Source: a virus
IMG/VR virus record: IMGVR_UViG_3300012924_000003
Location: 1-44,417 of that record
Reading direction: 5' to 3' (one strand)
DNA: 44,417 nt
Below are positions 2,998-44,417 of the stretch, piece by piece. Position 1 is the stretch's first letter, and every line of letters begins with the position of its first letter. The translations under genes were made by a program, and so were the position numbers. The notes beneath the pieces are model-generated. The model worked only from the letters and a program-made list of their open reading frames with translations. It was not told where the DNA came from and made no database searches.

Positions 2998-3330
2998 CTA
3001 AACTTTTGTGCCCAAGATGCGCTGGAAATCAGCCACATACTGCTTCAATGCTCGTTCCTTCACCAAAGCCAGTGGATTGCCGTATTTTCCGTAGCCTTCT
3101 GATTCTTTAGCGTCCAATTCCATCCGCTCCACCACCGCTTGCAACTGGTCGGCGATGGGCTGGAGGTCGGCGGCGCAGTCGCGGCAAGTATCAGCCACAG
3201 CGCGAGTGTAGGGCATCTCTGAACGCGCACCAGGCGCATTGCGCAGCCGCTCCAGCATCCCGTGTAAGGTTTCAGGCGCACCCAGCAGCCAATCCGTAAC
3301 CGCCTGCTCTCGTTTGATTTCATCGCTCAT
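2998..3330 (-). CDS. Hypothetical protein, paralogue of the gene at 2337-2606
   Basis: A 110-residue protein starting at the ATG at 3330, which overlaps the stop of the 28-residue micro-gene upstream (ATGA). It has TLHGMLERLR near residues 20-30, a CRDC pair followed by AADLQPIADQLQAV, then charged helix and QRILGTKV at the end. The shared blocks with the gene 400 bases further on identify an in-operon duplication. Function unknown. Confidence 0.68.
   Translation of the reverse strand: MSDEIKREQAVTDWLLGAPETLHGMLERLRNAPGARSEMPYTRAVADTCRDCAADLQPIADQLQAVVERMELDAKESEGYGKYGNPLALVKERALKQYVADFQRILGTKV
3132..3178. repeat. Dispersed repeat, copy 2 (47 bp)
   Basis: Partner of 2489-2535, with one mismatch in 47 bases; see that entry. 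Confidence 0.9.
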
Positions 3331-4236: not shown

Positions 4237-4469
4237 GATTTTGTCTCCTGAGTGGTAGTGGCTGGGGTCAGCGCGGCCCTAGCCTTATCGTGAGTAGCTT
4301 TAGGCATCCATTCCCCGCGAGTCGTGCCACCGTTGTCCAGCATTTCTTGCAGCGCTTCTCGCAGCCGGGTGTTTTCGGCTTCAAGGCCGAGCTGATGCTG
4401 AATCCACGATTCTGGGAATCCGGCATGGCGCAGAACATTCTCAATCGTTGGCAAAAGTTCAGTGCTCAT
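4233..4469 (-). CDS. Hypothetical protein
   Basis: A 78-residue protein with a helical N-terminus (TIENVLRHAGFPESWI), a Leu/Glu coiled segment (AENTRLREALQEML) and a Thr/Ala-rich flexible tail. Its start overlaps the stop of the nuclease gene upstream (ATGA), so the two are probably co-translated. Function unknown. Confidence 0.65.
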   Translation of the reverse strand: MSTELLPTIENVLRHAGFPESWIQHQLGLEAENTRLREALQEMLDNGGTTRGEWMPKATHDKARAALTPATTTQETKS

Positions 4470-5152
4470 GGCTGCTGTGTCTCCTCCGGCTGGGCTGCGA
4501 TTAGTTCTTCGTACAATTTCACTGCTGGAGCCAATTCTCGAATCATCTTGCGTAGGCTGAATTGCAGCGTCAAAACACCCAATGGAGCCTTAAACGCAGC
4601 ATACAAAGCCGACTTACTCCCTGGAACTCCTAGAAATTGAAAGACATAATAATCTGAGACTTCATTTAATATACCGTGGCGATGTATATTGAATTTCCAA
4701 ACTACCTCATCTTTTCCATGTTGCGCCTCGGCGCATTTGACTTCAATTTTAAACTTCCCATCGACAAGTAAATCGCCATCTTGGCGTCTTTTGATTCGTT
4801 GTACCTGATGACCGTGTGCCGCAAAAATCGATGCTAATTTGTTTTCAGCGCAAAACGATTTTTCGGCATGATGGTTGATAGGTGCATCAGGGTAACCAAA
4901 TACACGATTGCGCGAATAGTGCCTTCCGCAGAATCCTAGCCTTCCGTACTTATCAGGCATCCCGCAATCTGGAACTTTACATACGCCAGCGACAAATAAC
5001 TTCTTAGCACGCAATGGAAGTTCCACACTGCCAAGCCTCTTGAATCGCGTATAATGCATGTGGCACCAACCGTGAACAAAAGAATTTCTGTTAGGGCCTC
5101 CGCCTATGCCAGTACATCCATCAACTGAGCATTGTGTGTGCTTCTTCCTCAT
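4466..5152 (-). CDS. Double zinc-finger PD-(D/E)XK-like nuclease
   Basis: A 228-residue protein from the ATG at 5152. Two zinc modules come first, with ligands C8, C13, C30, H33 and C58, C63, C75, H78; each ends in the CxMHY or CGRHY style often found in front of phage endonucleases. A PD-(D/E)XK-like core follows: E103 in a helix, D127 in GDLLVDG, then E137-V-K139 in KFKIEVK. This suggests a DNA endonuclease, perhaps of homing or very-short-patch type. It is the first gene of the minus arm. Its DNA is clearly AT-richer than the flanks, which hints at separate acquisition. A frame extension to 5263 is ignored because it would cover the divergent promoter region. Confidence 0.7.
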   Translation of the reverse strand: MRKKHTQCSVDGCTGIGGGPNRNSFVHGWCHMHYTRFKRLGSVELPLRAKKLFVAGVCKVPDCGMPDKYGRLGFCGRHYSRNRVFGYPDAPINHHAEKSFCAENKLASIFAAHGHQVQRIKRRQDGDLLVDGKFKIEVKCAEAQHGKDEVVWKFNIHRHGILNEVSDYYVFQFLGVPGSKSALYAAFKAPLGVLTLQFSLRKMIRELAPAVKLYEELIAAQPEETQQP

Positions 5153-5188
5153 GCTCGTATGATTGCAAATGAATCGTATTTGTGTCAA
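5153..5188 (-). promoter_or_regulatory. Minus-arm promoter candidate
   Basis: On the minus strand TTGACA (5183-5188) is followed by 18 bases and AATCAT (5159-5164), whose last base is exactly 6 bases before the ATG at 5152. No Shine-Dalgarno sequence precedes the ATG. The -35 is perfect and the -10 weak. An alternative is TTGAAG with TACGAT further upstream. The spacing would give a leaderless transcript. Confidence 0.45.
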
Positions 5189-5219
5189 GTACCAATCTTC
5201 AACTAGTACTAAAATAATC

Positions 5220-5249
5220 TTGCTTTCGGGGGATTGAAGGCGATATAAG
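5220..5249 (+). promoter_or_regulatory. Plus-arm promoter candidate
   Basis: TTGCTT (5220-5225), an 18-base spacer and TATAAG (5244-5249) precede the ATG at 5256 with exactly 6 bases between hexamer and start codon. No ribosome-binding site is visible. Together with the opposing minus-strand signal it makes 5153-5255 a divergent promoter hub. Confidence 0.45.
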
Positions 5250-5255
5250 TGATTT

Positions 5256-5399
5256 ATGGACATTGAAAAGATGTCGAAAGACTTGGTTTATCACTGGGCG
5301 AAGCGCAAAGGGACGCTTTTGCAGCTTGAGAAAGCCGTGGCTAGGATAATCCGGTTGGCTCTCAGGCGGGCCACAGGGCAGAAAGCAGTAAACGAATGA
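5256..5399 (+). CDS. Small basic protein, first gene of the plus arm
   Basis: A 47-residue helical protein, starting MDIEKMSKDLVYHWAKRK and rich in Arg, Lys and Leu. Its stop overlaps the next ATG (ATGA). It begins at the predicted transcription start, without a Shine-Dalgarno sequence. A small basic product at the head of the arm could be a regulator, but no DNA-binding fold is recognisable. Confidence 0.5.
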   Translation: MDIEKMSKDLVYHWAKRKGTLLQLEKAVARIIRLALRRATGQKAVNE

Positions 5400-6661: not shown

Positions 6662-7207
6662 ATGTCCAAAAGTTCCCCACCACGCTGGAAACTCTTCGCT
6701 AGAGAATACTGCAAGGATATGAACGGTACAAAAGCCGCAATTTCAGCAGGTTACAAACAAAAAGGTGCAGCAGTTCAAGCATCAAGGATGCTAACCAACC
6801 CTAAGATTAAGTCAGAAATCGAGCGAATCCTTGCAGAAAGAGCCAAAAAACTAGACATTTCAGCCGAAAAAGTGCTTGGGGAGCTGGCAAAAATGGCTTT
6901 CTCGAACATGCAAGACTACATCAGGATTCAGAACGGCGAAGCGTATATCGACCTTTCGACCCTCACGCGAGAACAAGCAGCAGCGATCCAAGAGATTACC
7001 AGCGAAGTTTATACGGAAGGGCGAGGCGACGATGCGCGGGACATCAAACGCACTAAGTTCAAACTCGCAGAAAAGCGTGGCGCTCTCGAACTTCTTGGCA
7101 AAAATCTGAAACTGTTTACGGATAAGACTGAAATTGCCGGATTGGACGAATTAGCAACTATGTTGAGCAAGGCTCGGTCACGTGTCCAACAAACAGCTAA
7201 TGCATGA
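6662..7207 (+). CDS. terS: Terminase small subunit
   Basis: A 181-residue protein that recognises viral DNA for packaging. The N-terminus has the typical arrangement of this family: RWKLFAREYCKD, then NGTKAAISAGY, then GAAVQASRMLTNPKIKSEIE, a helix-turn-helix DNA-binding domain in the first 60 residues. A beta/helix oligomerisation region with FSNMQDYIRIQNGEAYIDLS and a C-terminal LAEKRGALELLGKNLKLF helix follow. It overlaps the large subunit by 26 bases, as is usual for a terS-terL pair. Confidence 0.9.
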   Translation: MSKSSPPRWKLFAREYCKDMNGTKAAISAGYKQKGAAVQASRMLTNPKIKSEIERILAERAKKLDISAEKVLGELAKMAFSNMQDYIRIQNGEAYIDLSTLTREQAAAIQEITSEVYTEGRGDDARDIKRTKFKLAEKRGALELLGKNLKLFTDKTEIAGLDELATMLSKARSRVQQTANA

Positions 7208-8726
7208 TATTTCGGGCTTTACGCGTGACCCGCTTGGCTTCATTCGGTATATCTATCCGTGGGGTGAAAGTGAGCTTACTGACTCACAAGGGCCACGAAA
7301 GTGGCAAGGCGAGTTCCTAAAGCTCGTTGGCGACCATTTAGAGGATTCAGCAACACAGTTCCAACCACTTCAAATCTCAATCGCCTCCGGGCACGGCATT
7401 GGCAAATCGGCTCTGGTAGGCATGTTCACCCACTGGGCGATGAGCACCTGTGAAGATTGCCGCGTAGTCATCACTGCGAATAGCGACCCGCAGTTGAGAA
7501 CCAAGACTTGGCCGGAAGTATCGAAGTGGTTCCGGCTTGGCATCAATGCCAACTGGTTCACGGTAAACGCCGAATCCATAACGATTAAGCAGGAAAAGCA
7601 CGCACCAATCTGGCGAACTGACCGGCTTACCTGGTCAACCAACAATCCCCAAGCGTTTGCCGGATTGCACAATAAAGGCAAACGCATCGTTGTGATTTTC
7701 GATGAGGCTTCGGAGATTGATGATGTCATCTGGGAAGTGACTCAAGGCGCGTTAACCGATGAAAACACAGAGATTATTTGGCTGGCGTTTGGCAATCCAA
7801 CTCAGAATACCGGCAGATTCAGGGAGTGCTTTGGCAAATACAAGCATCGCTGGAAGAACATTCAGATTGATTCGCGGACAGTAGAAGGGACGAATAAGAC
7901 CGAAATTGAGAATTGGATCAAGGATTATGGCTTGGATTCCGACTTTGTGCGAGTTCGTGTGCGAGGAGAATTCCCGCGAGCAGGGTCTAATCAGTTCATT
8001 CCAAGCGACATAGTAGCGAAAGCGAGGGCTACAATCATCGAAGGCTCTCTGCATCTGCCTAAAATCCTATCGGTGGATGTGGCCAGATTCGGCGATGACC
8101 AAACGGTTATCGGCATGAGGCAAGGCCGGAGATTCAAGATTCTCAGAAAGTATCGCGGCTTGGATACGGTAGAAACTACACGATTCATCATAGACCATAT
8201 TGAGAAAGAAGAGCCGGACGCCATCATTATCGATGGAGATGGGCTTGGCGCTGGAGTGATAGACAATCTGAACCATAGGGGTTTCAGGGACATAGTTTTC
8301 GAGTTTCACGGCGGAGAGACGGCTCAGAACAGTGAAATGTACTTCAATCGGCGAGCTGAGGTGTGGGGACTGGCTCGGTCGTGGCTCAAAAGTGGCGCTG
8401 AGATTCCAGACGATCCTGAGCTTGAAAGCGACCTGACTGGCCCGCAATATGGCTTTTCCGCCAAGCAGCAAGTCCAGCTAGAAAAGAAGGAAGATATGAA
8501 GAAACGAGGTCTCTCGTCGCCGGATTCTGGAGATTGCCTAGCGCAGACATTCGATGTCAAAGTAGCTGTTTCAAGAGAGGCAGAAGCGGAAGAGCGCGTC
8601 CGGCATAAGATGGAGCAGGTTGAGCCAAGCGAGAAGATGGTTCACTATCACCGAATTCTGGCGGAAGAAAAGGCCATGCACCCGAAGCAGTTCAAGATTA
8701 AAAAGCACTGGCGATTCGCACGTTAA
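7182..8726 (+). CDS. terL: Terminase large subunit (ATPase-nuclease)
   Basis: A 514-residue packaging motor. Residues 69-76 (SGHGIGKS) are the Walker A loop and 170-176 (VVIFDEA) the Walker B with catalytic Glu. The RNase H-like nuclease domain follows with SVDVARFGDD (D299), IIIDGDG (D351) and a C-terminal SPDSGDCLAQ (about 446-455). It pumps DNA into the prohead through the portal and cuts the concatemer. The start is GTG at 7182; an ATG at 7200 is the alternative. A 190-base regulatory gap follows. Confidence 0.95.
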   Translation: MSNKQLMHDISGFTRDPLGFIRYIYPWGESELTDSQGPRKWQGEFLKLVGDHLEDSATQFQPLQISIASGHGIGKSALVGMFTHWAMSTCEDCRVVITANSDPQLRTKTWPEVSKWFRLGINANWFTVNAESITIKQEKHAPIWRTDRLTWSTNNPQAFAGLHNKGKRIVVIFDEASEIDDVIWEVTQGALTDENTEIIWLAFGNPTQNTGRFRECFGKYKHRWKNIQIDSRTVEGTNKTEIENWIKDYGLDSDFVRVRVRGEFPRAGSNQFIPSDIVAKARATIIEGSLHLPKILSVDVARFGDDQTVIGMRQGRRFKILRKYRGLDTVETTRFIIDHIEKEEPDAIIIDGDGLGAGVIDNLNHRGFRDIVFEFHGGETAQNSEMYFNRRAEVWGLARSWLKSGAEIPDDPELESDLTGPQYGFSAKQQVQLEKKEDMKKRGLSSPDSGDCLAQTFDVKVAVSREAEAEERVRHKMEQVEPSEKMVHYHRILAEEKAMHPKQFKIKKHWRFAR

Positions 8727-12643: not shown

Positions 12644-13924
12644 ATGGCAACAGCAGTCGTAACACCACCAGCGGACAGTCTTGAGCAGAAGTTTGCCAAG
12701 ATTGAAAGCAACGCAGCAAGTGTGGCTGCGGTACCGGGAACGCCGACACCAAGCGTAGAAACGCCTGCAACACCTCCGGCAGCGGTGCCGGGACAGGAAA
12801 CTCCTGCTGAAAAACCGATTGAAGGCGTGGAACCGGAAGAACCAGAAGTTAATTTGGAAGCAGCACCAGAAACAAGCGGAGATTTCTCTCGTTACAAACC
12901 TTTGTTTCAGGAGAACCCGGAACTGCGGCAAATCCTGGGACGGGAAAAAGCCTTTACCGAGATGCAGGGCGAACAGCCATTCAGTGAATTCAAAGAGATT
13001 CACGAACGGGTGCCAACTCTTGCGGATGCGGAAAGGCTAGTCGAAGAATCAGAGAATGCGCGGGAGTTTGGCCGGACCTACCGGGAAAGCCCTGTGCAAT
13101 TCGTTGAGAGCCTTCGAGAGAGTGACCCCAACGCTTTTGGCAAGCTGATTTCCGACCTGCCTGACATCCTAGCCAAGACTGATGTAAATTCCTGGCGGGC
13201 ACAGGCCACCAGTTATCTTGACCCGGTACTAGCGAATCTTCACGGAATCGCCGTACGGGAAAACAATGAGGCATTGCAGCAAGCCGTTCAATTAGTGGCT
13301 CAGTCACTGGGCATCGCTCCCGGCAGCCGTACTTCCGCCGTGGGCAATAGCGAAGTGGAAGAGTTGCGAAAGAAACTTGCTGAAAAGGAAAGTTCGGAAG
13401 GACAGCAAGCGTTTCAGAATTTTTGGTCACAAACCGATTCCAAAGTCATGGATCAATCTATCTCGGAAATCGAAAGCACGTTGAAAAAGACAGTGCCTTT
13501 GGCTACCGAGTCACAGATGAAACGCATGGTGGGAGAGGTTTACGACAATTTATTAAAGGCGCTTGGCGCTCAACCGCAATTCGTCGCGCAAGTGGACACT
13601 TACCGCCAAAACGCGAAGAAGGGCCGGATGGGCATTTCCGACCACAATGCCATCGTTGATTTCAGCTTTAAGCGGGCTAAGTTGGTCATCCCGCGAATTG
13701 CCAGAGACGTAGCAAGAGAATGGAATGAATCCATCTTGCAGACCAACAACAAGCAAAACGAACAAAAATCGGCTATCGCCGCAAAAACCAAAGATGTAGG
13801 TTCCGGGCCACAAGCTACCACTTCCGCTGCTGCTGCCGTGCCGAAGAGCGGCAAAATGACATCGGAAGATATTTTCAAGGCTATGGAGTCCGGTACGTAC
13901 ATTCCGCCGAAGTCGCGGGTTTAG
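12644..13924 (+). CDS. Scaffold-like protein
   Basis: A 426-residue protein between portal and major capsid, where scaffolding proteins lie. The first 85 residues are Pro/Ala/Glu/Thr-rich and disordered. The rest is mainly helical and charged, and it ends in a small basic C-terminal segment (SEDIFKAMESGTYIPPKSRV), the part that binds coat protein in other scaffolds. A strong AAGGAG site precedes the ATG. A fused protease domain was looked for and no Ser-His motif seen. Confidence 0.75.
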   Translation: MATAVVTPPADSLEQKFAKIESNAASVAAVPGTPTPSVETPATPPAAVPGQETPAEKPIEGVEPEEPEVNLEAAPETSGDFSRYKPLFQENPELRQILGREKAFTEMQGEQPFSEFKEIHERVPTLADAERLVEESENAREFGRTYRESPVQFVESLRESDPNAFGKLISDLPDILAKTDVNSWRAQATSYLDPVLANLHGIAVRENNEALQQAVQLVAQSLGIAPGSRTSAVGNSEVEELRKKLAEKESSEGQQAFQNFWSQTDSKVMDQSISEIESTLKKTVPLATESQMKRMVGEVYDNLLKALGAQPQFVAQVDTYRQNAKKGRMGISDHNAIVDFSFKRAKLVIPRIARDVAREWNESILQTNNKQNEQKSAIAAKTKDVGSGPQATTSAAAAVPKSGKMTSEDIFKAMESGTYIPPKSRV

Positions 13925-13955: not shown

Positions 13956-15248
13956 ATGGCTTCAGTTGAGGCAAACGTTCAAGGTTTAGAACGCGAGCTG
14001 ATTGTTTACAAAGATGGCATCCCTGAACTTTTGGAAATGGATTCGCCGCTGTACAACTTGATGGAAAAGCAGGACGCTGACCCGGCTTCAAACCGCGCAA
14101 CACGTATTCCGTTGCTGGTTTCGGTGGGTGGCACTTTCCAGCAAGTCTCTATGGATGGCGGGTCGGTGGGTGATACCGGAGGCCCGGTGTGGCAGACCGC
14201 TACGCTGACTCCGTTCTATTACACTTCCGGCTTCAGCTACACGCTGCTTGCGAAGTATGCAACCACCGGAGCGGAGCGGGGAGTCAAATCGGCTACCGGC
14301 GAAGTAATGCGTCTGGCAGTCAAGGAATTCAAGACCTTCCTCGACATGCTGATGAATACCGCTGGCAACGGTGTGATTGGCACTATCACCTCCGTGGCCA
14401 CCAACGTATTTACCGTGACTACGGATGGTTTCAAGGAAGAATTGGTCATGGTCGGGCAAAACGTTCAGGTATACAACGCAGGGTTGACGACCAATCGTGG
14501 TTCTTCCACGGTTACGGCGTTCGATCCGGTTGGCCATACCATCACGGTAGCAGCGGCTCCGGGCGGCAGCGTTGCCACGGATTTGCTGGTTATCGGCGGC
14601 CTTTCCGGCACGCTTACGGCGCAGTCATCCTTGTTTGGCATCCAGTACCATCAGTCGGACGCGACTTCTGGCACTTGGCTTGGACTAAACCGGGCAACCG
14701 TTCCGCAAGTAGTGACTCCATCGGTCAATGCTGCTAACTCAGTATTGACGACTGGAATGGTCAGGGCTGCTCTTAACCGCATTCGTATCAACTTGGGCGA
14801 TTCTTTCTTCAACACCGAAATGACCAAGCTGATTTCGTACATGCATCCGGCACAAGCCGATTCCTACGAGTCCATCGCGCTACTGATTAGCTCGATTTGG
14901 AAAGACCCCACTGGCAATCAAAACGTCGATTTGCTGTTCAACAACCAGAGCGGCATGAAGATGAGCAATGTGCCTATCGTGCAGTCGATTCACCAAGACC
15001 GCACTCGCATTGATTTCTTGTGCTTGGGATATTGGGGGCGCATCGTGGCCACTGATACCGGGTTTTTGACCATCGGCGATAAGATTGTCTGGCCGAAAAT
15101 CGATACCACTACCGTTCCAGGCGGCTTGCTGGCCACTGAGCAGTTTTGGCTCAAGGCTGGCGTCCAGGTATACAACAGAAATCCCGCAGGCAGTTCCTAC
15201 ATCAAGAGTTTGGGTTTGCCCTTGATTGGTTCATCGAGCATTTATTGA
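13956..15248 (+). CDS. Major capsid protein
   Basis: A 430-residue protein placed directly after the scaffold, with a good AAGGAG site before its ATG. It has the general make-up of an HK97-fold coat: an N-terminal arm (residues 1-50), a GGTFQQVSMDGGSVG loop region, a long spine-like helix (LAVKEFKTFLDMLMNTAG) and a beta-rich insertion from about 140 to 215 that may be a surface domain. The last 18 bases overlap a convergent HNH gene. Confidence 0.82.
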   Translation: MASVEANVQGLERELIVYKDGIPELLEMDSPLYNLMEKQDADPASNRATRIPLLVSVGGTFQQVSMDGGSVGDTGGPVWQTATLTPFYYTSGFSYTLLAKYATTGAERGVKSATGEVMRLAVKEFKTFLDMLMNTAGNGVIGTITSVATNVFTVTTDGFKEELVMVGQNVQVYNAGLTTNRGSSTVTAFDPVGHTITVAAAPGGSVATDLLVIGGLSGTLTAQSSLFGIQYHQSDATSGTWLGLNRATVPQVVTPSVNAANSVLTTGMVRAALNRIRINLGDSFFNTEMTKLISYMHPAQADSYESIALLISSIWKDPTGNQNVDLLFNNQSGMKMSNVPIVQSIHQDRTRIDFLCLGYWGRIVATDTGFLTIGDKIVWPKIDTTTVPGGLLATEQFWLKAGVQVYNRNPAGSSYIKSLGLPLIGSSSIY

Positions 15249-15806
15249 TGAGTTAAGTTTACTTTTCCGATACTGGATAAATTCATCGCCAGTCATCGCG
15301 CTCTTAGAGCAATTGCACTTGAGGCAGGCAGGGACGACATTATCTATATCGTCTCTGCCACCTCTCTTAAAAGGAATTACATGGTCTTTGGTCAAAGTCG
15401 CAGCAGTAAGAATGGATTGACAGTAGAAACATTTCCATTCGCAGGATTCGACTTTCTCAATCCACTGCGCGAGAGTATGAGAGCCGCCATTAGTTTTCTT
15501 GCGGTCTTTGCGTTTTCGATTGTGGTAATTTATTTTGACCGCGTTTTTCTTTCTATATTTACGCTCCATTTCGAGAACGGCTTGCGGGTCGCGCTCTTTC
15601 CATTTCTTGTAACCTTTAATGGAATAAGCAGATTTTTTAGCCCTATTCTTAGCGACCCATTGGCGCTGGTAAGCATTCTTTTTTATCCGATTCTTTTTAC
15701 CATACTCGCAGCATTTTTTATTGTGTGCAGCTCTTTGTTCTGGCGTCCATTTGGCACGATATTGCTGCATGTACAATCTACGAGCAACTGGGTCTTTGAG
15801 AGGCAT
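15231..15806 (-). CDS. HNH homing-type endonuclease, antisense to the head operon
   Basis: A 191-residue protein. A long Lys/Arg/Tyr/Gln-rich DNA-binding region (about residues 1-105) leads into an HNH core: CFYC, then KDHVIPFKRGG, DNVVPAC and CNCSK, matching the DHxxP-GG-DN-xxC-xxCN pattern. It lies against the flow of the head operon and overlaps the capsid gene end by 18 bases. Parts of the gene are AT-rich (about 37 percent GC in 15661-15720). This looks like a free-standing homing endonuclease inserted between capsid and the next head gene. Confidence 0.85.
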   Translation of the reverse strand: MPLKDPVARRLYMQQYRAKWTPEQRAAHNKKCCEYGKKNRIKKNAYQRQWVAKNRAKKSAYSIKGYKKWKERDPQAVLEMERKYRKKNAVKINYHNRKRKDRKKTNGGSHTLAQWIEKVESCEWKCFYCQSILTAATLTKDHVIPFKRGGRDDIDNVVPACLKCNCSKSAMTGDEFIQYRKSKLNSSINAR

Positions 15807-37219: not shown

Positions 37220-37319
37220 GAATCCTCTCCAGGCGAACCATCTTTCGGCTCCAGCCGTCTTTGTTTTTGTAGCCAGCCGGGTAAATCCTGGCAATCACCG
37301 CTACCCATTCTTTGTCCAA
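37095..37319 (-). CDS. Overlapping small reading frame, uncertain
   Basis: A 74-residue frame with TTG start, MDKEWVAVIARIYPAGYKNK and DGWSRKMVRLERIHGQEVP at its N-terminal half. That part looks protein-like. It fills the 80 bases between the HNH stop and the start of the basic protein and then runs out of phase over that gene. The C-terminal part is Gly/Ala/Gln-rich. Possibly a real overlapping gene. Confidence 0.35.
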   Translation of the reverse strand: MDKEWVAVIARIYPAGYKNKDGWSRKMVRLERIHGQEVPLAEAQLEEQEGEAYVSPGLDASVAGGARKQNSRKD

Positions 37320-37636
37320 CGCGGCACCCTTTCGTCTTCCGCTAAATGGCAGAAATGAGACAAATTCGCTAGGTTCTTGAGCCTGTCGTCACGCCCGTCC
37401 CTGCGAGGAATGATGTGGTGCGGCTCTTCGCCTTCCGTCCTGCACAAAACCACGTGCGGCTTGTGCAGGATGCTCCAGCGCTCGCAAAGTCCGGCACTAC
37501 GTTCTTGCAGCTCCATCTTGCGGCGCCGCCAATCTTCGCCGAACAACACCTCTTCGCCCGTAGGCCGGACAAACGACTTGGCATCGGTGTACCCAAGCTC
37601 GGCCTTCCGCTCAGGACTTTTGTTCATCAAGCCCAT
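37301..37636 (-). CDS. HNH endonuclease
   Basis: A 111-residue HNH-type nuclease. It has the zinc Cys and the core CRTEGEEPHHIIPRRDGRDD then LKNLANLSHFCH, i.e. the HHIIP...N...C..H pattern. The starts at 37636 and 37627 both precede the family's conserved part. It overlaps the upstream gene by up to 26 bases. Probably a homing-type enzyme or a packaging-linked nuclease. Confidence 0.78.
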   Translation of the reverse strand: MGLMNKSPERKAELGYTDAKSFVRPTGEEVLFGEDWRRRKMELQERSAGLCERWSILHKPHVVLCRTEGEEPHHIIPRRDGRDDRLKNLANLSHFCHLAEDERVPRWTKNG

Positions 37637-38089: not shown

Positions 38090-38377
38090 TCATTTGCGGA
38101 GCGCCCATGTCCCCTGATACCCACCGCGCCTCCCAAGCCGATTCGACGGCATCACCGTCACCAAATCCCACGCCCCGCCACGGAACACCCCGCCAGCAGA
38201 ATTGCCAAGCGCTTCCGGGCTGATAAACCGCGTTACATCGTCCATACAAACTGTGTCTTGCTGGTGGCCCAGAAGTTCAGCTACCCAGCAAGCAGCAAGA
38301 AAAGACTCCCGATGAGCGCTCTCTGCTCTGGCCAAGCCTGTTAATTTCAGTTGCTTGGGAGTGCTGAGAATGGGCAT
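38090..38377 (-). CDS. Conserved-type phage hypothetical protein
   Basis: A 95-residue protein with a GGAG site three bases before the ATG at 38377. The end pattern ALGNSAGGVFRGGAWDLV then SNRLGRRGGYQGTWALRK resembles small phage proteins with a [AG]N[SA][AW]G[AG]VFR...WR motif usually found beside recombination genes. It overlaps the ERF gene end by 31 bases. Function not known to me. Confidence 0.65.
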   Translation of the reverse strand: MPILSTPKQLKLTGLARAESAHRESFLAACWVAELLGHQQDTVCMDDVTRFISPEALGNSAGGVFRGGAWDLVTVMPSNRLGRRGGYQGTWALRK

Positions 38378-39138
38378 TGTCTCCGCTCCAGTGTGTATTT
38401 CAAGTCCTCTAGCTGTTGTGCGTTTACCACAATTGCCTTTGCCGTGGGATTCCAGAAGTCTCGCAGTACGTCCTTGTTGAGCTTCTTGAGCGCTTCGTCT
38501 CCCAAGATGGTTGCCGTCTGGCTCTCTTGGTGCCAAACGTAGAACAGCGAACGCTCGCCATTAGCCTGTTCCTGCGATTCTAGGGCTGCCTGCGCGGTTT
38601 TATTCCCCGCTTTGGCTGCTTGCTCTATTTTTTGCCTTGCTACCGCCTGAGCGGCTTCCGCTGTGCCTTGCCCTGAAACATCGTTGCCATCGTCATCGTC
38701 CTCGGCCACCGAGCCTGTCACTGATTGCCAAGAGTACCGTCTGGCGTAGGTCATGGCCTTGCCGATGCTGTGCGCCGTGAAGCCGCGTTCGTCCACTGCT
38801 GGGATAAGCAGTTCGTGGCTAATCCATTCGCCGGATTCATGCGCCATGAGCGTAGTGACTATCAAGTTCTTGCCAGTCAGTGTCACGGTTGGAAACTGCA
38901 TGATGGTGATTCCGTTGTTATTCAGGTGCTTTCTGGTGGCCGAAACCAGGCTGAACAGGTCGGCATACTTCGATACCCGGTTACCGCGCTTGAAAGCTGG
39001 ATTCTCCGATTCCTTGTAGATGGGGTCGAAGGCCAACTGCGCCTTGCACAACGCAGTGACCAGCTTCCCAATATCCGTGGAGCGTTTCACTGACACCAAC
39101 TCGTTCGATTCGGGCTTCTCTTCGATTGCTTCACTCAT
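38347..39138 (-). CDS. erf: ERF-family single-strand annealing protein
   Basis: A 263-residue member of the ERF family (essential recombination function), which anneals complementary single strands and circularises or recombines phage DNA. The family pattern is clear: KAQLAFDPIYKESENPAF, YADLFSLVSATRKHLNNNGI, then HSIGKAMTYARRYSW at about 123-137 followed by an acidic EDDDDGND linker. The C-terminal domain is variable. With no replication enzymes visible, it is the main recognisable DNA-metabolism protein. Confidence 0.88.
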   Translation of the reverse strand: MSEAIEEKPESNELVSVKRSTDIGKLVTALCKAQLAFDPIYKESENPAFKRGNRVSKYADLFSLVSATRKHLNNNGITIMQFPTVTLTGKNLIVTTLMAHESGEWISHELLIPAVDERGFTAHSIGKAMTYARRYSWQSVTGSVAEDDDDGNDVSGQGTAEAAQAVARQKIEQAAKAGNKTAQAALESQEQANGERSLFYVWHQESQTATILGDEALKKLNKDVLRDFWNPTAKAIVVNAQQLEDLKYTLERRQCPFSALPSN

Positions 39139-39531: not shown

Positions 39532-39560
39532 CTTGTCTCACGTCGCGTGAAACCTGTCAA
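39532..39560 (-). promoter_or_regulatory. Promoter with embedded palindrome
   Basis: On the minus strand TTGACA (39555-39560), a 17-base spacer and GACAAG (39532-39537) lie with exactly 6 bases before the ATG at 39525. The spacer contains the interrupted palindrome TCACG-CGA-CGTGA (39538-39550), a good operator candidate. The -10 is poor, so activity may need an activator. No Shine-Dalgarno is seen. Confidence 0.5.
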
Positions 39561-39586
39561 TAGGGATTATTTACACTGTGCAAAAC

Positions 39587-39769
39587 TTATTTTTCTGCTC
39601 CTGTGGATAAATGGATTCTTTTGCTGTTCTCTGCTTCGGCTTCATCTTGATTTGCTGAACGCCAGCCGCAAGAACAAACGCAACCCCACGGCCTGCCTAT
39701 GCAGATAGGCTTGTGAATGATTTGTACTTCGTGCGTCGTTTGTGTTTCTTGGCTCCGGCTAACTTCCAT
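39587..39769 (-). CDS. Small Cys-containing protein, uncertain
   Basis: A 60-residue frame with a Cys cluster GCVCSCGWRSA, like half of a small zinc ribbon in many phage proteins, then a Glu/Ala-rich segment. Its start lies 73 bases inside the HNH gene in another frame. Real, truncated or accidental are all possible. Confidence 0.4.
   Translation of the reverse strand: MEVSRSQETQTTHEVQIIHKPICIGRPWGCVCSCGWRSANQDEAEAENSKRIHLSTGAEK
39602..39610. promoter_or_regulatory. DnaA-box match
   Basis: TGTGGATAA is the complement of the perfect DnaA box TTATCCACA. It lies in an AT-rich stretch (39565-39620) upstream of the regulator promoter. A perfect 9-mer is expected about 0.3 times by chance in 44 kb, so the evidence is modest. 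It falls within the doubtful small frame 39587-39769. Confidence 0.35.
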
Positions 39770-39999
39770 AGGTGTATCTGCCTCTGCTCCCAAGCCGTTC
39801 TAAAGTTATGATGCGGGTGCCTTTTTCCATGACAGACAATGCACAGGTGCTCCAAATCCTCCGGTAGTTCCTGCCCCTTTCGCGCATAGGTCACATGATG
39901 AAAGTGCTCGGCTTTATTTATTTTGCAATCTTCGCAAGTCATCATAGAGCGCAAAATCACTGCTTCTTTCGCCGCACTACTAATTTTTATTTTCCCCAT
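39697..39999 (-). CDS. HNH endonuclease
   Basis: A 100-residue HNH nuclease: CEDCKINKAEHFHHVTYARKG then DLEHLCIVCHGKRH, i.e. CxxC, HHV, and CxxCH. It has a basic tail (GAKKHKRRTKY). It is the first gene after the structured 40000-40542 gap on the minus strand. Lack of a good promoter or ribosome-binding site suggests read-through. Confidence 0.78.
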   Translation of the reverse strand: MGKIKISSAAKEAVILRSMMTCEDCKINKAEHFHHVTYARKGQELPEDLEHLCIVCHGKRHPHHNFRTAWEQRQIHLWKLAGAKKHKRRTKYKSFTSLSA

Positions 40000-40170
40000 A
40001 GTCCGTTTTCCCTGCCGAAGTTTCCCTCTGAAGGTTTCGGGGTGCGAGGGGCAGAGCCCCTTAGCATCTCAAAGTCGTGTTTAGAGATAGCAAGCCACGG
40101 TTCTCACCAATAGTTCCTGCTTACTATCGGTTGCAACCTTTAAGTTTCGGCTAGTGGAAACCGCGCATTT

Positions 40171-40236
40171 GCTATCAAACCTGGCAGACCAAGTTCCTCG
40201 GCAGGAGAGCTTGGATTTGTTTTGAGATTTGATAGC
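40171..40236. repeat. Nested inverted repeat
   Basis: The outer arms GCTATCAAA (40171-40179) and TTTGATAGC (40228-40236) pair over 9 bp. The inner CCAAG (40189-40193) and CTTGG (40210-40214) pair over 5 bp, with TCCT-CGGC-AGGA at the tip. A two-stem hairpin forms on either strand. Confidence 0.65.
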
Positions 40237-40312
40237 GGGTGAATACACAACGCCCTTCATTCCCGCAAAGCGGCAGAGTGACGGCTTCAGACTGGAAAAA
40301 TGTAGGAGCATA

Positions 40313-40375
40313 TTCGCCGGAACATCTTTCTAACGGCTCCCCTTGTGATATGCGTGCGAGGCGTGTTCCGGCGAA
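40313..40375. repeat. 12-bp perfect inverted repeat
   Basis: TTCGCCGGAACA (40313-40324) and TGTTCCGGCGAA (40364-40375) are exact complements with a 39-base loop. The loop contains sequences (40342-40354 and 40354-40360) that pair with segments downstream at 40396-40408 (13 bp, one mismatch) and 40420-40426 (7 bp), so the fold is interlocked. Confidence 0.75.
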
Positions 40376-40408
40376 GGACCATCTGACCCCAACGCCGCAC
40401 ATCACAAG
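40342..40408. repeat. 13-bp inverted repeat crossing the 12-bp pair
   Basis: CTTGTGATATGCG (40342-40354) pairs with CGCACATCACAAG (40396-40408) with one A-C mismatch. The left arm lies in the loop of the 12-bp pair and the right arm outside it, so both stems together would be a pseudoknot, or the two are alternative folds. Confidence 0.65.
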
Positions 40409-40542
40409 AGAAACCCTTGCTCGCACTCTACCCCAATCCAGGAAACGGCGTCAAGGCTTTTCTGCTGCGGGCCCGTGCAAAACATTGGGAAAACAGCAAA
40501 ATAAGGCTTTTACCCGATTGTACCAGCCACGTCTAGTCTGAA

Positions 40543-40749
40543 ATGCTAGAGCACGCCATGTACCGCCCACTTGCAGAGGAACGGCCCCAACTGCGTTCGG
40601 CGCTGAGCCAAGAAATTGTGGCTTTGGAGCTGGAACTGTGCTCGTTGTCGCCACATGTCGTAGCGCTAGAACGGCTGCTGGCACGCAAAGCAGACCTCGA
40701 AAAGCGGTTGGCATGGCTCAGGGATATGGAGCTGAGCTGCGAGCGCTAA
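40543..40749 (+). CDS. Small leucine-rich helical protein, plus strand
   Basis: A 68-residue protein with heptad-like leucines (LSQEIVALELELCSLSPHVV, then LERLLARKADLEKRLAWL). No minus-strand gene covers this interval. It lies alone on the plus strand inside the minus arm and converges on the next gene with a 4-base overlap. There is no clear ribosome-binding site. A second Met at 40558 is an alternative start. Confidence 0.45.
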   Translation: MLEHAMYRPLAEERPQLRSALSQEIVALELELCSLSPHVVALERLLARKADLEKRLAWLRDMELSCER

Positions 40750-41081
40750 GGGCTGCGGTTGCTTTGCTCATGGTTTCCTCGCTGGGGCTGGTGGCCACGG
40801 TATTTCTTCTGAGAATTCAAGTGGTTTGTGCAGGATGATAATTGCTCTAGGTGCTTCACTACTGCTGCCAGACCGCCAGATTCGTTTAACTCCATGATTT
40901 TGTCGTGGTCATGCTCGTAGGCAATCAGCAATTCGATTCCCGCTGCGTTCTGCTGCGGCACGAAATAGTCGTCGGTCTTTAGGTCAATAGGGTCGGCCTG
41001 CTGCAAGCGCATCAGGTTCTCGCGCTCCATCACTAGAATCAAGATGCGCCTGCGTCCTAGCTGAAGTGGCAAAGCAATCAT
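40746..41081 (-). CDS. Hypothetical protein
   Basis: A 111-residue protein. The N-terminal half (LGRRRILILVMERENLMRLQ) and middle (GIELLIAYEHDHDKIMELNE) look folded; the C-terminus is polar and basic (SQKKYRGHQPQRGNHEQSNR). Start overlaps the previous stop (ATGA). No family recognised. Confidence 0.6.
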   Translation of the reverse strand: MIALPLQLGRRRILILVMERENLMRLQQADPIDLKTDDYFVPQQNAAGIELLIAYEHDHDKIMELNESGGLAAVVKHLEQLSSCTNHLNSQKKYRGHQPQRGNHEQSNRSP

Positions 41082-41485
41082 ATTTTCGTCGCTTTATTCC
41101 ACGGCTGAAGTGCTGCTAGCTCTCGCGGTTCTGGGAACTTGCCGTCAAATCGGACGGCGCGGTCATCAAGCGTAACAACTGCTGCTGGTTTCCAGCGCGT
41201 GAAGCGCACATCTTCAATCCCCGGCCCTGCTGGCGTGTCGTACCAAAGATTCCCAGAATGAGTCCGTAGCCAGCTACGCATCGCGGAGATTCCGCCCCAG
41301 TAACGAGCGCGGCTGGAATGAATCACCACGTCATAGTCGCGTACCGCGTGGAGAATGAATTCGATTGCTCCTTCTACTGGCGAGTCGGGAATATTGCGTG
41401 CCCCTCGCCAGCCGCTCGTATAGCTGTGAATCACGCCGTCAAAGTCCAAGCAAATAATCGGCTTGCGTTTAGATTCCGTAGTCAT
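41078..41485 (-). CDS. HAD-like phosphatase
   Basis: A 135-residue single-domain HAD-type protein. Motif I is ICLDFDGVIHSY with D14 and D16; motif II is probably VVIHSSRAR (Ser near 57), and motif IV is TLDDRAVRFDG near 106. Short versions without a cap are common in phages, where they may process nucleotides or polynucleotide ends. Coupled to neighbours by 4-base and longer overlaps. Confidence 0.78.
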   Translation of the reverse strand: MTTESKRKPIICLDFDGVIHSYTSGWRGARNIPDSPVEGAIEFILHAVRDYDVVIHSSRARYWGGISAMRSWLRTHSGNLWYDTPAGPGIEDVRFTRWKPAAVVTLDDRAVRFDGKFPEPRELAALQPWNKATKI

Positions 41486-41720
41486 AACTCGGTGCCTCTC
41501 TCCAATCAGGTTCAGTTTCGCAGGTGGAACACGCGCAAATCGTCAGGTGCATTTTCGTATCCAGATGCTTGCTGCAAGATGTGCCAACTTCGACTAGGAC
41601 AACCACGCCGCGCCGGCCGCAATGAAAATTAAACCAAGTATTCCTAAGCACCCTAAACCGGAAGGTTTTCGCATCCGGGTATTGCTTCAAAGCGAACAGC
41701 CTCGCTCGTTCTACGCTCAC
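41469..41720 (-). CDS. Small Cys-containing protein
   Basis: An 83-residue protein from the GTG at 41720, which overlaps the methyltransferase stop (GTGA). It starts MSVERARLFALKQYPDAKTF and has a beta-rich middle (GRRGVVVLVEVG). Its Cys residues (FHCG, TSCSK, CACSTC) could bind zinc. The frame extends to 41756 but the coupled start is preferred. Function unknown. Confidence 0.6.
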   Translation of the reverse strand: MSVERARLFALKQYPDAKTFRFRVLRNTWFNFHCGRRGVVVLVEVGTSCSKHLDTKMHLTICACSTCETEPDWREAPSYDYGI

Positions 41721-43114
41721 GCTTTCTTCTCCTGTGCCTCTCGCTGGGCGCCCCACTGCTCCACAATTCGTTCTGCATATTCGGCTACACAGTTTGCTAG
41801 TTCAGGAGGAATGGTGGCCACAATATCGGTTTGCGTTTTGCCCTTCACGCCATTATGCCGCACGTCCCAACCTGGCTTGCCTTTGTGCTCGCGCAGCCCC
41901 ATCGCCAGTTCGGTCATGCCCTTCCGGCAATTCGGCAACTTTCCTGTAGGGACAGCCGTTCCCCATAGATGAAAACTACCAGCGTGATTATCGGATTTTC
42001 CGACGTAGCGCTGCGCCCCGGCGACATTCTCCATTACGTACGGAATTCCTGCGGCCTCGCATATTGATCGAGCGTGATTGAATAACTTGATGCCCAGCGC
42101 GGGGAAAGGAACTGGCGGACGGAAATTCAGCATGGTACTGAACTGTTCGCAGGGTGTTGAGGCTACGACGAAGTTAAAGTTCTGAATATAATCCGCCGTG
42201 ATTTCCAGAATGTCACCTTCGACCATAGTACAGCCTTGCGGCACGGCTCGAGCAGGCTTACGCAAGTCAACGCAGATGCAGATATGGCCGCGCTGGGCAA
42301 AAACAGCAGACCAGCCAAGCTCGCCAGCGCATAAATCCAGCACTCTCATTTGCCTGCCTCTCGCTAAATCGTGCAGGTGAATTTCGTCGGCGGGCATTGA
42401 AGGGTCAATCTCAATCCGAAATGTGGGCTGGCTGGCCTGCGGCGCGGCGGCGATTCGACGGATGTCGTCTAGCTTCTGGCAGACGTTAATCCAATCCGAG
42501 TTGACGAAAACGAATTCCACGTTTCGTGCGCAATATTGAGCTTTATCCAAAGCATCCCGCAATCGCCGCTCGGCCTCCCGCAACTGTTCCGGCGTCCCGG
42601 TTGGCGGTGGGGCGGCGGCCAGCAGTCGATTACCCTCGGCAACATACCATTGCAAATCTTCCTGCATCATCTCGACGATGCGAACCAATTCCTCTTTGCT
42701 CTTTTCAGCCAACGGTACAGAAATGGGGGTTTGTAGCAGCATATTCTTTTTGTGACCGTAGCCGGGCTGACAGACACAGTGCTCTCCACCAGCGCAGTGC
42801 CTATTAGGGCCAGAGCAATATCTATTTTCATGCTCGTCACGACATTTTGGATTCTCGCAAACGAACACTTCAGCTTTGAGATTGATAGCGCAATCGGAGC
42901 ATTTTAGCTCAGTACGCTCTTCGCAGATGTGACAAAGATGTCTGTCATTTATTCTATCCATGATTACCCTGCTTTCTTTTGGCCACGGCTTAGGCGAAAC
43001 ATAACCAGGAGCAAGAGGACAAACACCCTTTGGCGTTCCATAGTGCAGGCCGCCACAACTTAAACAGGTCTCTTGACCGGGAAGCGCATCACTATCTAAT
43101 TTCCAGCGGCTCAT
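41717..43114 (-). CDS. Cys-rich domain fused to C5-cytosine methyltransferase
   Basis: A 465-residue fusion. Residues 1-120 hold at least twelve Cys in pairs (CLSC, CHICEE, CSDC, CENPKC, CVCQ), resembling a RING- or treble-clef-type zinc domain. Residues 135-250 are a helical linker with APPPTGTPEQL. Residues 255-465 are an S-adenosylmethionine methyltransferase of the C5-cytosine type: DLCAGELGWS (motif I), STPCEQFS with catalytic C322 (motif IV), VMENVAG (motif VI). The target-recognition region is short. It may protect phage DNA or change its regulation. Confidence 0.75.
   Translation of the reverse strand: MSRWKLDSDALPGQETCLSCGGLHYGTPKGVCPLAPGYVSPKPWPKESRVIMDRINDRHLCHICEERTELKCSDCAINLKAEVFVCENPKCRDEHENRYCSGPNRHCAGGEHCVCQPGYGHKKNMLLQTPISVPLAEKSKEELVRIVEMMQEDLQWYVAEGNRLLAAAPPPTGTPEQLREAERRLRDALDKAQYCARNVEFVFVNSDWINVCQKLDDIRRIAAAPQASQPTFRIEIDPSMPADEIHLHDLARGRQMRVLDLCAGELGWSAVFAQRGHICICVDLRKPARAVPQGCTMVEGDILEITADYIQNFNFVVASTPCEQFSTMLNFRPPVPFPALGIKLFNHARSICEAAGIPYVMENVAGAQRYVGKSDNHAGSFHLWGTAVPTGKLPNCRKGMTELAMGLREHKGKPGWDVRHNGVKGKTQTDIVATIPPELANCVAEYAERIVEQWGAQREAQEKKA
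42575..42618. repeat. 44-bp repeat, copy 1
   Basis: Identical to 43601-43644. It encodes the linker APPPTGTPEQLRE in the methyltransferase, and the same peptide in the neighbouring 316-residue protein. Confidence 0.92.
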
Positions 43115-43278: not shown

Positions 43279-44215
43279 TTTTATCGCTCCACAAATGCTC
43301 TGTGACAAGGACGTTCTCCAAATCTACTTGCTCTCTAAACGACTCAATGAAACGAATCGCGTCACTTCGGCGAGAAAAGCGCAGTGCCGAAATATCGGTA
43401 AATGCAACCCACTTCGGTTTGTGGTCACAAAACCCAAAGCACAATCCAGTACGTTCAATTAGATGTGCCACAGAAACGTGTCCTGCTATGAGAGCTTCCA
43501 ACTCGTTGGCGTGGTCTCCACAGGCCGTAGCGTAGCCGTTGTATTCATGCTGATTCGGCAGGTACAATTCAGCCTTATGTTTCCGCCACTTTTCCGCCAG
43601 CTCCCGCAACTGTTCCGGCGTCCCGGTTGGCGGTGGGGCGGCGGGCAACTTAGAAATTAATACCGCTCGGTACTCTTCTTCCGTTTCATTTTTTGATGGG
43701 TAACGCCAGCCATGCTGCTCAGCTAAATCCATCAAATCGTCCATATCCATGCTTGCAAGCGGCTGCGGCGTCCCTGCGGGCTGGGGCACTGGCGAATCGA
43801 ACTCATCTGCGAAAGTTATCCTGGCTGAAAGATTTATCACGTGCGGAAGTTCTGCTGCGCGTTTCACGATGCAGGCCGCGCAAAGTACTCCACCATCGTC
43901 AGGATTCAGCAAAAGCCACTGTTCTTTGGAGAGCACAACATCTAGCGGCTGCTTGGAATAATCCTGACCGCAATAGAGGCACTTTACCTGCGCCGTCTCT
44001 TCCGTCGCTACCGGAGCCGCTGGATTCATTGAAACCTGAAATTCATCTTGCGTTTCAGCGTCAGCAAAGGTAGGAGCGTGAAGCTCTAAGTTTTCGAGCG
44101 GATCCGCTGGGGGCACGCAGATTGGATTACCGGGCCAATAACCAACTTCTAGGCCACAATTCTTGCAGCGGTAATCGTCCCAGTGAATAAGTTCGTGTTC
44201 TTTATTGGCCATCAC
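43265..44215 (-). CDS. Multi-zinc-ribbon protein
   Basis: A 316-residue protein. CKNCG near residue 17 and the pairs CLYCGQDYSK (about 79-88) and CAACIVKRA (about 111-119) suggest one or two zinc ribbons. A Pro-rich linker with AAPPPTGTPEQLREL follows, shared with the methyltransferase by a 44-bp identical DNA repeat. The C-terminus is helix/beta with DISALRFSRRSDAIRF. It starts at GTG 44215 or ATG 44212, after AGGAG. No catalytic motif. Confidence 0.65.
   Translation of the reverse strand: MMANKEHELIHWDDYRCKNCGLEVGYWPGNPICVPPADPLENLELHAPTFADAETQDEFQVSMNPAAPVATEETAQVKCLYCGQDYSKQPLDVVLSKEQWLLLNPDDGGVLCAACIVKRAAELPHVINLSARITFADEFDSPVPQPAGTPQPLASMDMDDLMDLAEQHGWRYPSKNETEEEYRAVLISKLPAAPPPTGTPEQLRELAEKWRKHKAELYLPNQHEYNGYATACGDHANELEALIAGHVSVAHLIERTGLCFGFCDHKPKWVAFTDISALRFSRRSDAIRFIESFREQVDLENVLVTEHLWSDKNDRT
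43601..43644. repeat. 44-bp repeat, copy 2
   Basis: Identical to 42575-42618. The two copies encode the same linker peptide in two otherwise unlike proteins. Confidence 0.92.
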
Positions 44216-44245: not shown

Positions 44246-44417
44246 TTATTCAGAATCTCGCGGGTCTCCAGCAAATCCTTTTACGCTTTGTGCAGCGGGG
44301 GCTGTTAGCTGCTCAATGCGCGTCACGAGTTCGTCAGCGGCTTCACATCCATACTCACGGCAAATTTCTATCGCTTTGCCGAACGCTGCCCGTTCCGCTG
44401 CGATACGGTGGGCGGCA
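44246..44417 (-). CDS. Hypothetical protein, 3' part (gene crosses the circle junction)
   Basis: The end of the gene that starts at 293; 44295-44417 repeats 1-123 and the unique part is 44246-44294. The frame continues to a TAA at 44246-44248 with no break (C-terminus AAQSVKGFAGDPRDSE). It lies 30 bases from the start of the next gene at 44215. Confidence 0.75.
   Translation of the reverse strand, partial: AAHRIAAERAAFGKAIEICREYGCEAADELVTRIEQLTAPAAQSVKGFAGDPRDSE
44295..44417. repeat. Terminal direct repeat, right copy
   Basis: Identical to 1-123; see the left copy. Removing one copy gives the 44,294-bp unit. Confidence 0.93.

What the first reader, a model, noticed from the sequence alone, without database searches (positions are those of the whole stretch)
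40000..40542. 540-base structured gap: possible origin or non-coding RNA
In a tightly packed genome this gap has no convincing gene but at least five inverted repeats. A perfect 12-bp pair (40313-40375) is crossed by a 13-bp pair (40342-40408) and a 7-bp pair (40354-40426), giving pseudoknot-like or alternative folds. Such dense, interlocked pairing suggests a functional RNA or a replication origin with hairpins.
Basis: partly seen in the sequence, partly recalled or inferred. Interest (0 to 1): 0.7.

Follow-up and report, generated by a model that had tools for sequence, protein, structure and literature searches.

The report
Pseudoknotted RNA leader before phage endonuclease
A gap between genes in an uncultured phage seems to encode a tightly folded RNA, on the strand opposite to the one shown, lying directly in front of a small DNA-cutting (HNH) gene whose production it probably controls, but no relative was found that could prove the fold.

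Summary
They make best sense as RNA on the minus strand. That crossing pair is the strongest in the 44-kb window on either strand and was reached by 0 of 160 whole-window shuffles. Four of the five DNA mismatches in the long pair are G-U on the minus strand.

The RNA ends at the start codon of a small HNH endonuclease gene on the same strand (39999-39697), and a promoter-like site lies just before the pseudoknot. I read the region as a structured 5' leader of a free-standing phage HNH gene that gates its translation, a new, elaborate variant of the leaders known for T4-type homing endonucleases. Gating is inferred: predicted pairing of the weak ribosome site is no more than chance often gives.

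An origin is not supported. No Rfam family, group I intron, HEARO or protein match was found. No relative turned up in IMG/VR, phages, plasmids or about 400 genomes, so covariation is untested. A stand-alone RNA or a chance fold remains possible.

The parts
40000..40418 (-). Proposed structured RNA (5' leader of the HNH gene), about 419 nt
   Evidence: 420 nt upstream of the HNH start folds at z -4.60 on the minus strand; the same test upstream of three other HNH genes gives +0.46, -1.23, -0.06. Sliding scan places the structure at about 40000-40450. 5' end inferred from a promoter-like site only.
40335..40415 (-). Helix A: 40415-40396 with 40354-40335, 20 continuous pairs on the minus strand (4 G-U)
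   Evidence: -36.0 kcal/mol stacking, best helix of the window; 4 of 160 whole-window shuffles reach it
40313..40375 (-). Helix B: 40375-40364 with 40324-40313, 12 Watson-Crick pairs, crossing helix A (H-type pseudoknot)
   Evidence: A+B crossing pair -61.7, 0 of 160 shuffles
40247..40457 (-). Domain 1 closing stems around the pseudoknot: 40452-40447/40254-40249 and 40432-40424/40280-40272 (exist only if transcription starts upstream of 40452)
   Evidence: 211-nt domain z -5.70 on minus, -0.93 on plus; pairs listed
40171..40236 (-). Helix 40236-40225/40182-40171 (12 pairs, 1 G-U), core of domain 2
   Evidence: domain 2 (40246-40000) z -3.44 minus, -3.96 plus, so its strand is undecided
40010..40206 (-). 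Possible long-range helix 40206-40196/40020-40010 that would pair the HNH gene's weak Shine-Dalgarno AGGG (40013-40010)
   Evidence: 11 pairs, -23.2; AGGG paired with mean probability 0.98, but 14.5% of leader shuffles do as well
40425..40454 (-). Promoter-like site TTGACG-18-TAGAGT, predicted start about 40418, 3 nt before helix A
   Evidence: one of 13 such sites on the minus strand of the window; consensus match only
39697..39999 (-). HNH endonuclease gene, 100 aa, same strand, immediately downstream
   Evidence: PHROG HNH families E 1e-6 to 1e-4; phrog_119 E 3e-8 on the DNA; Pfam HNH 16.0 bits, below cut-off
40746..41081 (-). Upstream gene, native only to about residue 80; likely mosaic junction near 40842
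   Evidence: 80 aa at 87.5% identity to L004 and 80% to L008, then unrelated; the lost C-terminus is nowhere in the window

Best explanation
The gap encodes a structured RNA transcribed leftward (minus strand) together with the 100-aa HNH endonuclease gene that starts right after it. Its 5' part folds into a stable H-type pseudoknot (helix A 13-20 bp, helix B 12 bp) inside a multi-stem domain, and its 3' part folds up to the ribosome-binding region of the HNH gene. Most likely it is a cis-acting leader that limits or times translation, or sets stability, of the endonuclease mRNA. RNA and HNH gene arrived together as one module next to a mosaic junction. Supported: the pairing and its strand bias, the adjacency, the truncated neighbour. 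Inferred: the transcript, its start, the pseudoknot in solution, the joint arrival, and the translational effect.
For: Pseudoknot-type crossing pair beyond chance for the whole window. Domain 1 is minus-specific: z -5.70 against -0.93. Four of five DNA mismatches in the long pair are G-U on minus. The structured stretch ends at the HNH start codon and the HNH coding stretch is not structured. Of four HNH genes in this phage only this one has a structured upstream region. Promoter-like site just before helix A. Adding helix B to a helix-A fold gives -67.3 before any loop penalty against -53.1 for the best nested fold of 40418-40300. Precedent: T4-type HEG leaders, including HNH mobE, sequester the ribosome site (PMC2988022), and T4 gene 32 uses a leader pseudoknot (PMC3014915).
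Against: One sequence only; no covariation. Pairing of the AGGG is not beyond chance (14.5% of shuffles), AGGG is a weak ribosome site, and its partner is not the pseudoknot. Domain 2 shows no strand preference. For the 419-nt leader, the pseudoknot's advantage over the nested fold (-166.7 against -159.1) is within what a loop penalty could cancel. The promoter-like site may be chance. The closing stems of domain 1 need a start upstream of 40452, which conflicts with a start at 40418.
Confidence: 0.45

Rival explanations
1. A stand-alone, trans-acting phage noncoding RNA that merely lies beside the HNH gene, comparable in style to the ornate phage RNAs.
For: Dense multi-stem fold with crossing helices; own promoter-like site; about 420-450 nt; no strong pairing at the start codon itself.
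Against: No terminator-like site at its 3' end, so the RNA would run into the HNH gene; no Rfam match; no tRNA genes, near which GOLLD and ROOL often lie (PMC12286853).
Confidence: 0.25
2. Decayed or random DNA at a recombination junction; the fold is a chance outlier.
For: The region borders a mosaic junction; most single repeats are within chance; helix A alone is borderline for the whole window (4 of 160); coding stretches elsewhere reach z -5.2; no relatives.
Against: The crossing pair exceeds all 160 whole-window shuffles by about 6 sd of the null; the G-U pattern is strand-consistent in domain 1.
Confidence: 0.17
3. A DNA element: replication origin, partition or recombination site built of hairpins.
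For: Domain 2 is equally structured on both strands; the gap is non-coding.
Against: No skew turn at 40 kb; no iterons; the 20-bp helix needs G-U pairs and is imperfect as DNA.
Confidence: 0.07
4. A mobile ribozyme or intron carrying its HNH gene (group I-like), inserted in the truncated upstream gene.
For: Structured RNA followed by an HNH ORF, and the upstream gene is interrupted.
Against: Rfam group I model finds nothing up to E 10; no second exon anywhere in the window; no group II or other ribozyme match.
Confidence: 0.05

Closest known systems
Translation-controlled homing endonuclease leaders of T4-type phages (I-TevI, I-TevII, I-TevIII, segB, HNH gene mobE of Aeh1; PMC2988022)
   Same: Structured RNA directly in front of a phage endonuclease gene on the same strand; ribosome site predicted paired.
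   Different: Those are compact hairpins over the ribosome site with a late promoter inside; here about 420 nt with crossing helices, a weak ribosome site, and pairing of that site no stronger than chance.
T4/T2/RB69 gene 32 leader pseudoknot (PMC3014915)
   Same: Pseudoknot in a phage mRNA leader upstream of the start codon.
   Different: Here the stems are 12 and 13-20 bp, longer than in that small pseudoknot (own knowledge); the downstream gene is HNH, not ssDNA-binding protein; about 300 nt separate pseudoknot and start codon, against 67 nt in gene 32.
HEARO / omega RNA with IscB or IsrB (Rfam RF02033)
   Same: Structured RNA just 5' of an HNH-bearing ORF.
   Different: No match to the RNA model; the ORF is 100 aa with no RuvC or RRXRR part.
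ROOL and GOLLD phage RNAs (PMC12286853)
   Same: Large, multi-stem phage RNA with predicted pseudoknots.
   Different: No Rfam match, no tRNA island, smaller, single known sequence.

Membership tests
Translation-controlled HEG leader (T4 type) | Endonuclease gene immediately downstream on the same strand | tested here: met
   HNH 39999-39697
Translation-controlled HEG leader (T4 type) | Stable structure sequesters the ribosome-binding site beyond chance | tested here: inconclusive
   AGGG paired 0.98, but 14.5% of shuffles equal it
Translation-controlled HEG leader (T4 type) | Structure reduces endonuclease translation | not testable with these tools
   needs reporter assays
HEARO / omega RNA-IscB | Matches the RF02033 covariance model | tested here: not met
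   no match up to E 10
HEARO / omega RNA-IscB | Partner protein with RuvC and RRXRR (PLMP) parts | tested here: not met
   ORF is 100 aa, HNH only; PF14239 absent; IscB model 17.2 bits against cut-off 175
Group I intron with HNH ORF | Matches the group I core (RF00028) | tested here: not met
   no match up to E 10; the control genomes ring
Group I intron with HNH ORF | Interrupts a gene whose second exon follows | tested here: not met
   C-terminal exon of the truncated gene not in the window
ROOL / GOLLD | Matches Rfam models | tested here: not met
   no hits
Replication origin | Skew turning point or iterons at the site | tested here: not met
Structured RNA | Compensatory base changes in relatives | not testable with these tools
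   no relative found

The most novel reading that the evidence does not exclude
A new family of phage RNA that works physically with a minimal HNH protein (RNA-bound or RNA-guided cutting without RuvC), or a new ornate phage RNA class, here represented by its first member.
Probability: 0.05. Interest if true: 0.85.

Novelty: new variant of a known kind. Interest (0 to 1): 0.36.

Why it matters
If confirmed, it would extend leader control of phage endonucleases from simple hairpins to a large pseudoknotted RNA; [quoted passage not shown] It would also give a sequence and a fold model with which to look for relatives in metagenomes. With a single sequence, the value for now is a well-located, testable candidate.

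Tried and rejected
Relatives by DNA: none in phages or plasmids beyond chance. By HNH protein: none in viral or genome contigs, none in phages, only weak ordinary HNH proteins in plasmids. By RNA frames translated as bait: none. Through neighbouring genes: L002-L108 fetched; none carries the RNA by blastn or by a model built from the single sequence, nor do 399 genomes of one phylum; those empty results say little, as a one-sequence model reaches only near relatives. An HNH relative in L072 is the end of a different 185-aa protein without such a leader. Plus-strand ORFs 40543-40749 and 40713-40838: no credible family match, no native codon usage, and running against the operon, so not taken as genes. 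Rfam snoRNA and MicA hits at E above 2 are chance. Three mutually crossing helices (A, B and the 7-bp pair) cannot plausibly all form at once; the 7-bp pair is taken as an alternative or chance.

Full report
What the window is. It is a virus record of 44417 bases with a 123-bp direct repeat at its two ends, 1-123 and 44295-44417, so probably a complete, circularly joined phage map. Rightward genes run from about 5.8 to 34.5 kb (large terminase 7182-8726, about 50% identical to enterobacterial and Pseudomonas phage terminases). Leftward genes fill the rest, including an Erf-like annealing protein (38347-39138), a methyltransferase-like protein (41717-43114) and a HAD-like protein (41078-41485). 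The gap lies inside the leftward unit.

The observation. All the stated repeats exist and no frame in the gap looks like a gene. Seen as minus-strand RNA the 13-bp pair becomes 20 continuous pairs, 40415-40396 with 40354-40335, and the 12-bp pair 40375-40364/40324-40313 crosses it in H-type order. Loops are 20, 9 and 10 nt, or 20, 9 and 17 nt if only the inner 13 pairs of A form; the second case is sterically easier (inference).

Is it more than chance? Whole gap: minus z -4.65, plus z -3.41, none of 100 shuffles as good on either strand. Domain 40457-40247: minus -5.70, plus -0.93. Sliding windows confine the signal to about 40000-40450 with a peak of -5.9 at 40250-40449 minus. Fold energy alone is not unique in this genome: a coding stretch at 12901-13100 gives -5.2 with 20 shuffles. 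The crossing pair is the stronger test. It ranks first among 182 chunks on both strands (-61.7, next -50.3), and none of 160 dinucleotide shuffles of the whole window reached it (mean -45.1, sd 2.7, best -55.7). Helix A alone was reached in 4 of 160.

Strand. Of the five mismatches in the 23-nt DNA repeat I1, four become G-U on the minus strand and none on the plus strand. The stems 40432-40424/40280-40272 and 40236-40225/40182-40171 each contain one more minus-strand G-U. One pair, 40286-40296/40532-40542, goes the other way (full with G-U on plus). Domain 2 (40246-40000) is structured on both strands, so the strand case rests on domain 1.

Surroundings. The RNA ends at the ATG of a 100-aa HNH gene on the same strand (39999-39697). 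A promoter-like TTGACG-18-TAGAGT would start transcription near 40418, 3 nt before helix A; there are only 13 such sites on that strand in 44 kb, but it is a consensus match and no more. If transcription instead starts further upstream, the outer stems of domain 1 can form. Upstream, the gene at 40746-41081 matches phages L004 and L008 to residue 80 and then turns into unrelated sequence; the missing end is nowhere in the window. So the stretch from about 40842 leftward to at least the HNH gene looks like an exchanged module. In the relative L004 the same place holds other genes. The phage has further HNH-type genes at 15231-15806, 37301-37636 and 4466-5263; none has a structured leader.

How it most likely works. 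The best reading is a cis-acting leader of a free-standing HNH gene. In T4-type phages such leaders sequester the ribosome site of intron-encoded and free-standing endonucleases, among them the HNH gene mobE (PMC2988022), and a leader pseudoknot serves gene 32 autoregulation (PMC3014915). Here the AGGG before the ATG is predicted paired (0.98), with several competing partners: an 11-bp long-range helix 40206-40196/40020-40010, or 40160-40146 in the best nested fold of the shorter transcript. But 14.5% of shuffled leaders do as well, so translational gating is an inference from context and not shown. Energetically the pseudoknot beats the nested fold clearly in a 119-nt piece (-67.3 before loop penalty against -53.1) but only marginally in the whole leader (-166.7 against -159.1), so switching between folds is also open.

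Membership. Group I (RF00028), HEARO (RF02033) and everything else in Rfam fail. The HNH protein has a faint resemblance to the HNH part of IscB (17.2 bits against a cut-off of 175), but there is no RRXRR domain in the window and the 100-aa ORF has no room for RuvC. It is therefore not an IscB system; that an HNH protein works with this RNA is only a remote possibility. The origin idea finds no support in skew or repeats.

Limits. No relative was found by any route open here (see Tried and rejected), so the decisive test, covariation, was not possible. I put about 0.7 on a real minus-strand structured RNA and 0.45 on the leader-of-HNH reading.

Noticed in passing
39550-39585 (minus): A 31-36 bp non-coding element, TTTTGCACAGTGTAAATAATCCCTATTGACAGG, is about 92-97% conserved in the relative L004 (7279-7314), ahead of a leftward gene in both. 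It combines a near-perfect dyad TTTGCAC-A-GTGTAAA with a TTGACA hexamer: probably an operator plus promoter.
   Followed up: partly
15231-15806, 37301-37636, 4466-5263 (minus): Three more HNH-type endonuclease genes besides 39697-39999; the one at 15231-15806 sits backwards among rightward structural genes, as a free-standing homing endonuclease would.
   Followed up: partly
1-123 and 44295-44417: Perfect 123-bp direct terminal repeat, so the record is probably a complete phage genome.
   Followed up: no
2489-2535 and 3132-3178; 42575-42621 and 43601-43647: Two different pairs of 47-bp direct repeats (46 of 47 identical) in leftward coding regions, suggesting recent local duplications.
   Followed up: no
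12901-13100 (plus): A stretch inside the ORF 12644-13924 folds unusually well (z -5.2 with 20 shuffles); unexplained.
   Followed up: no
39587-39793 (minus): Short ORF overlapping the end of the HNH gene matches small PHROG families of unknown function (best phrog_5419, E 1.7e-4).
   Followed up: no
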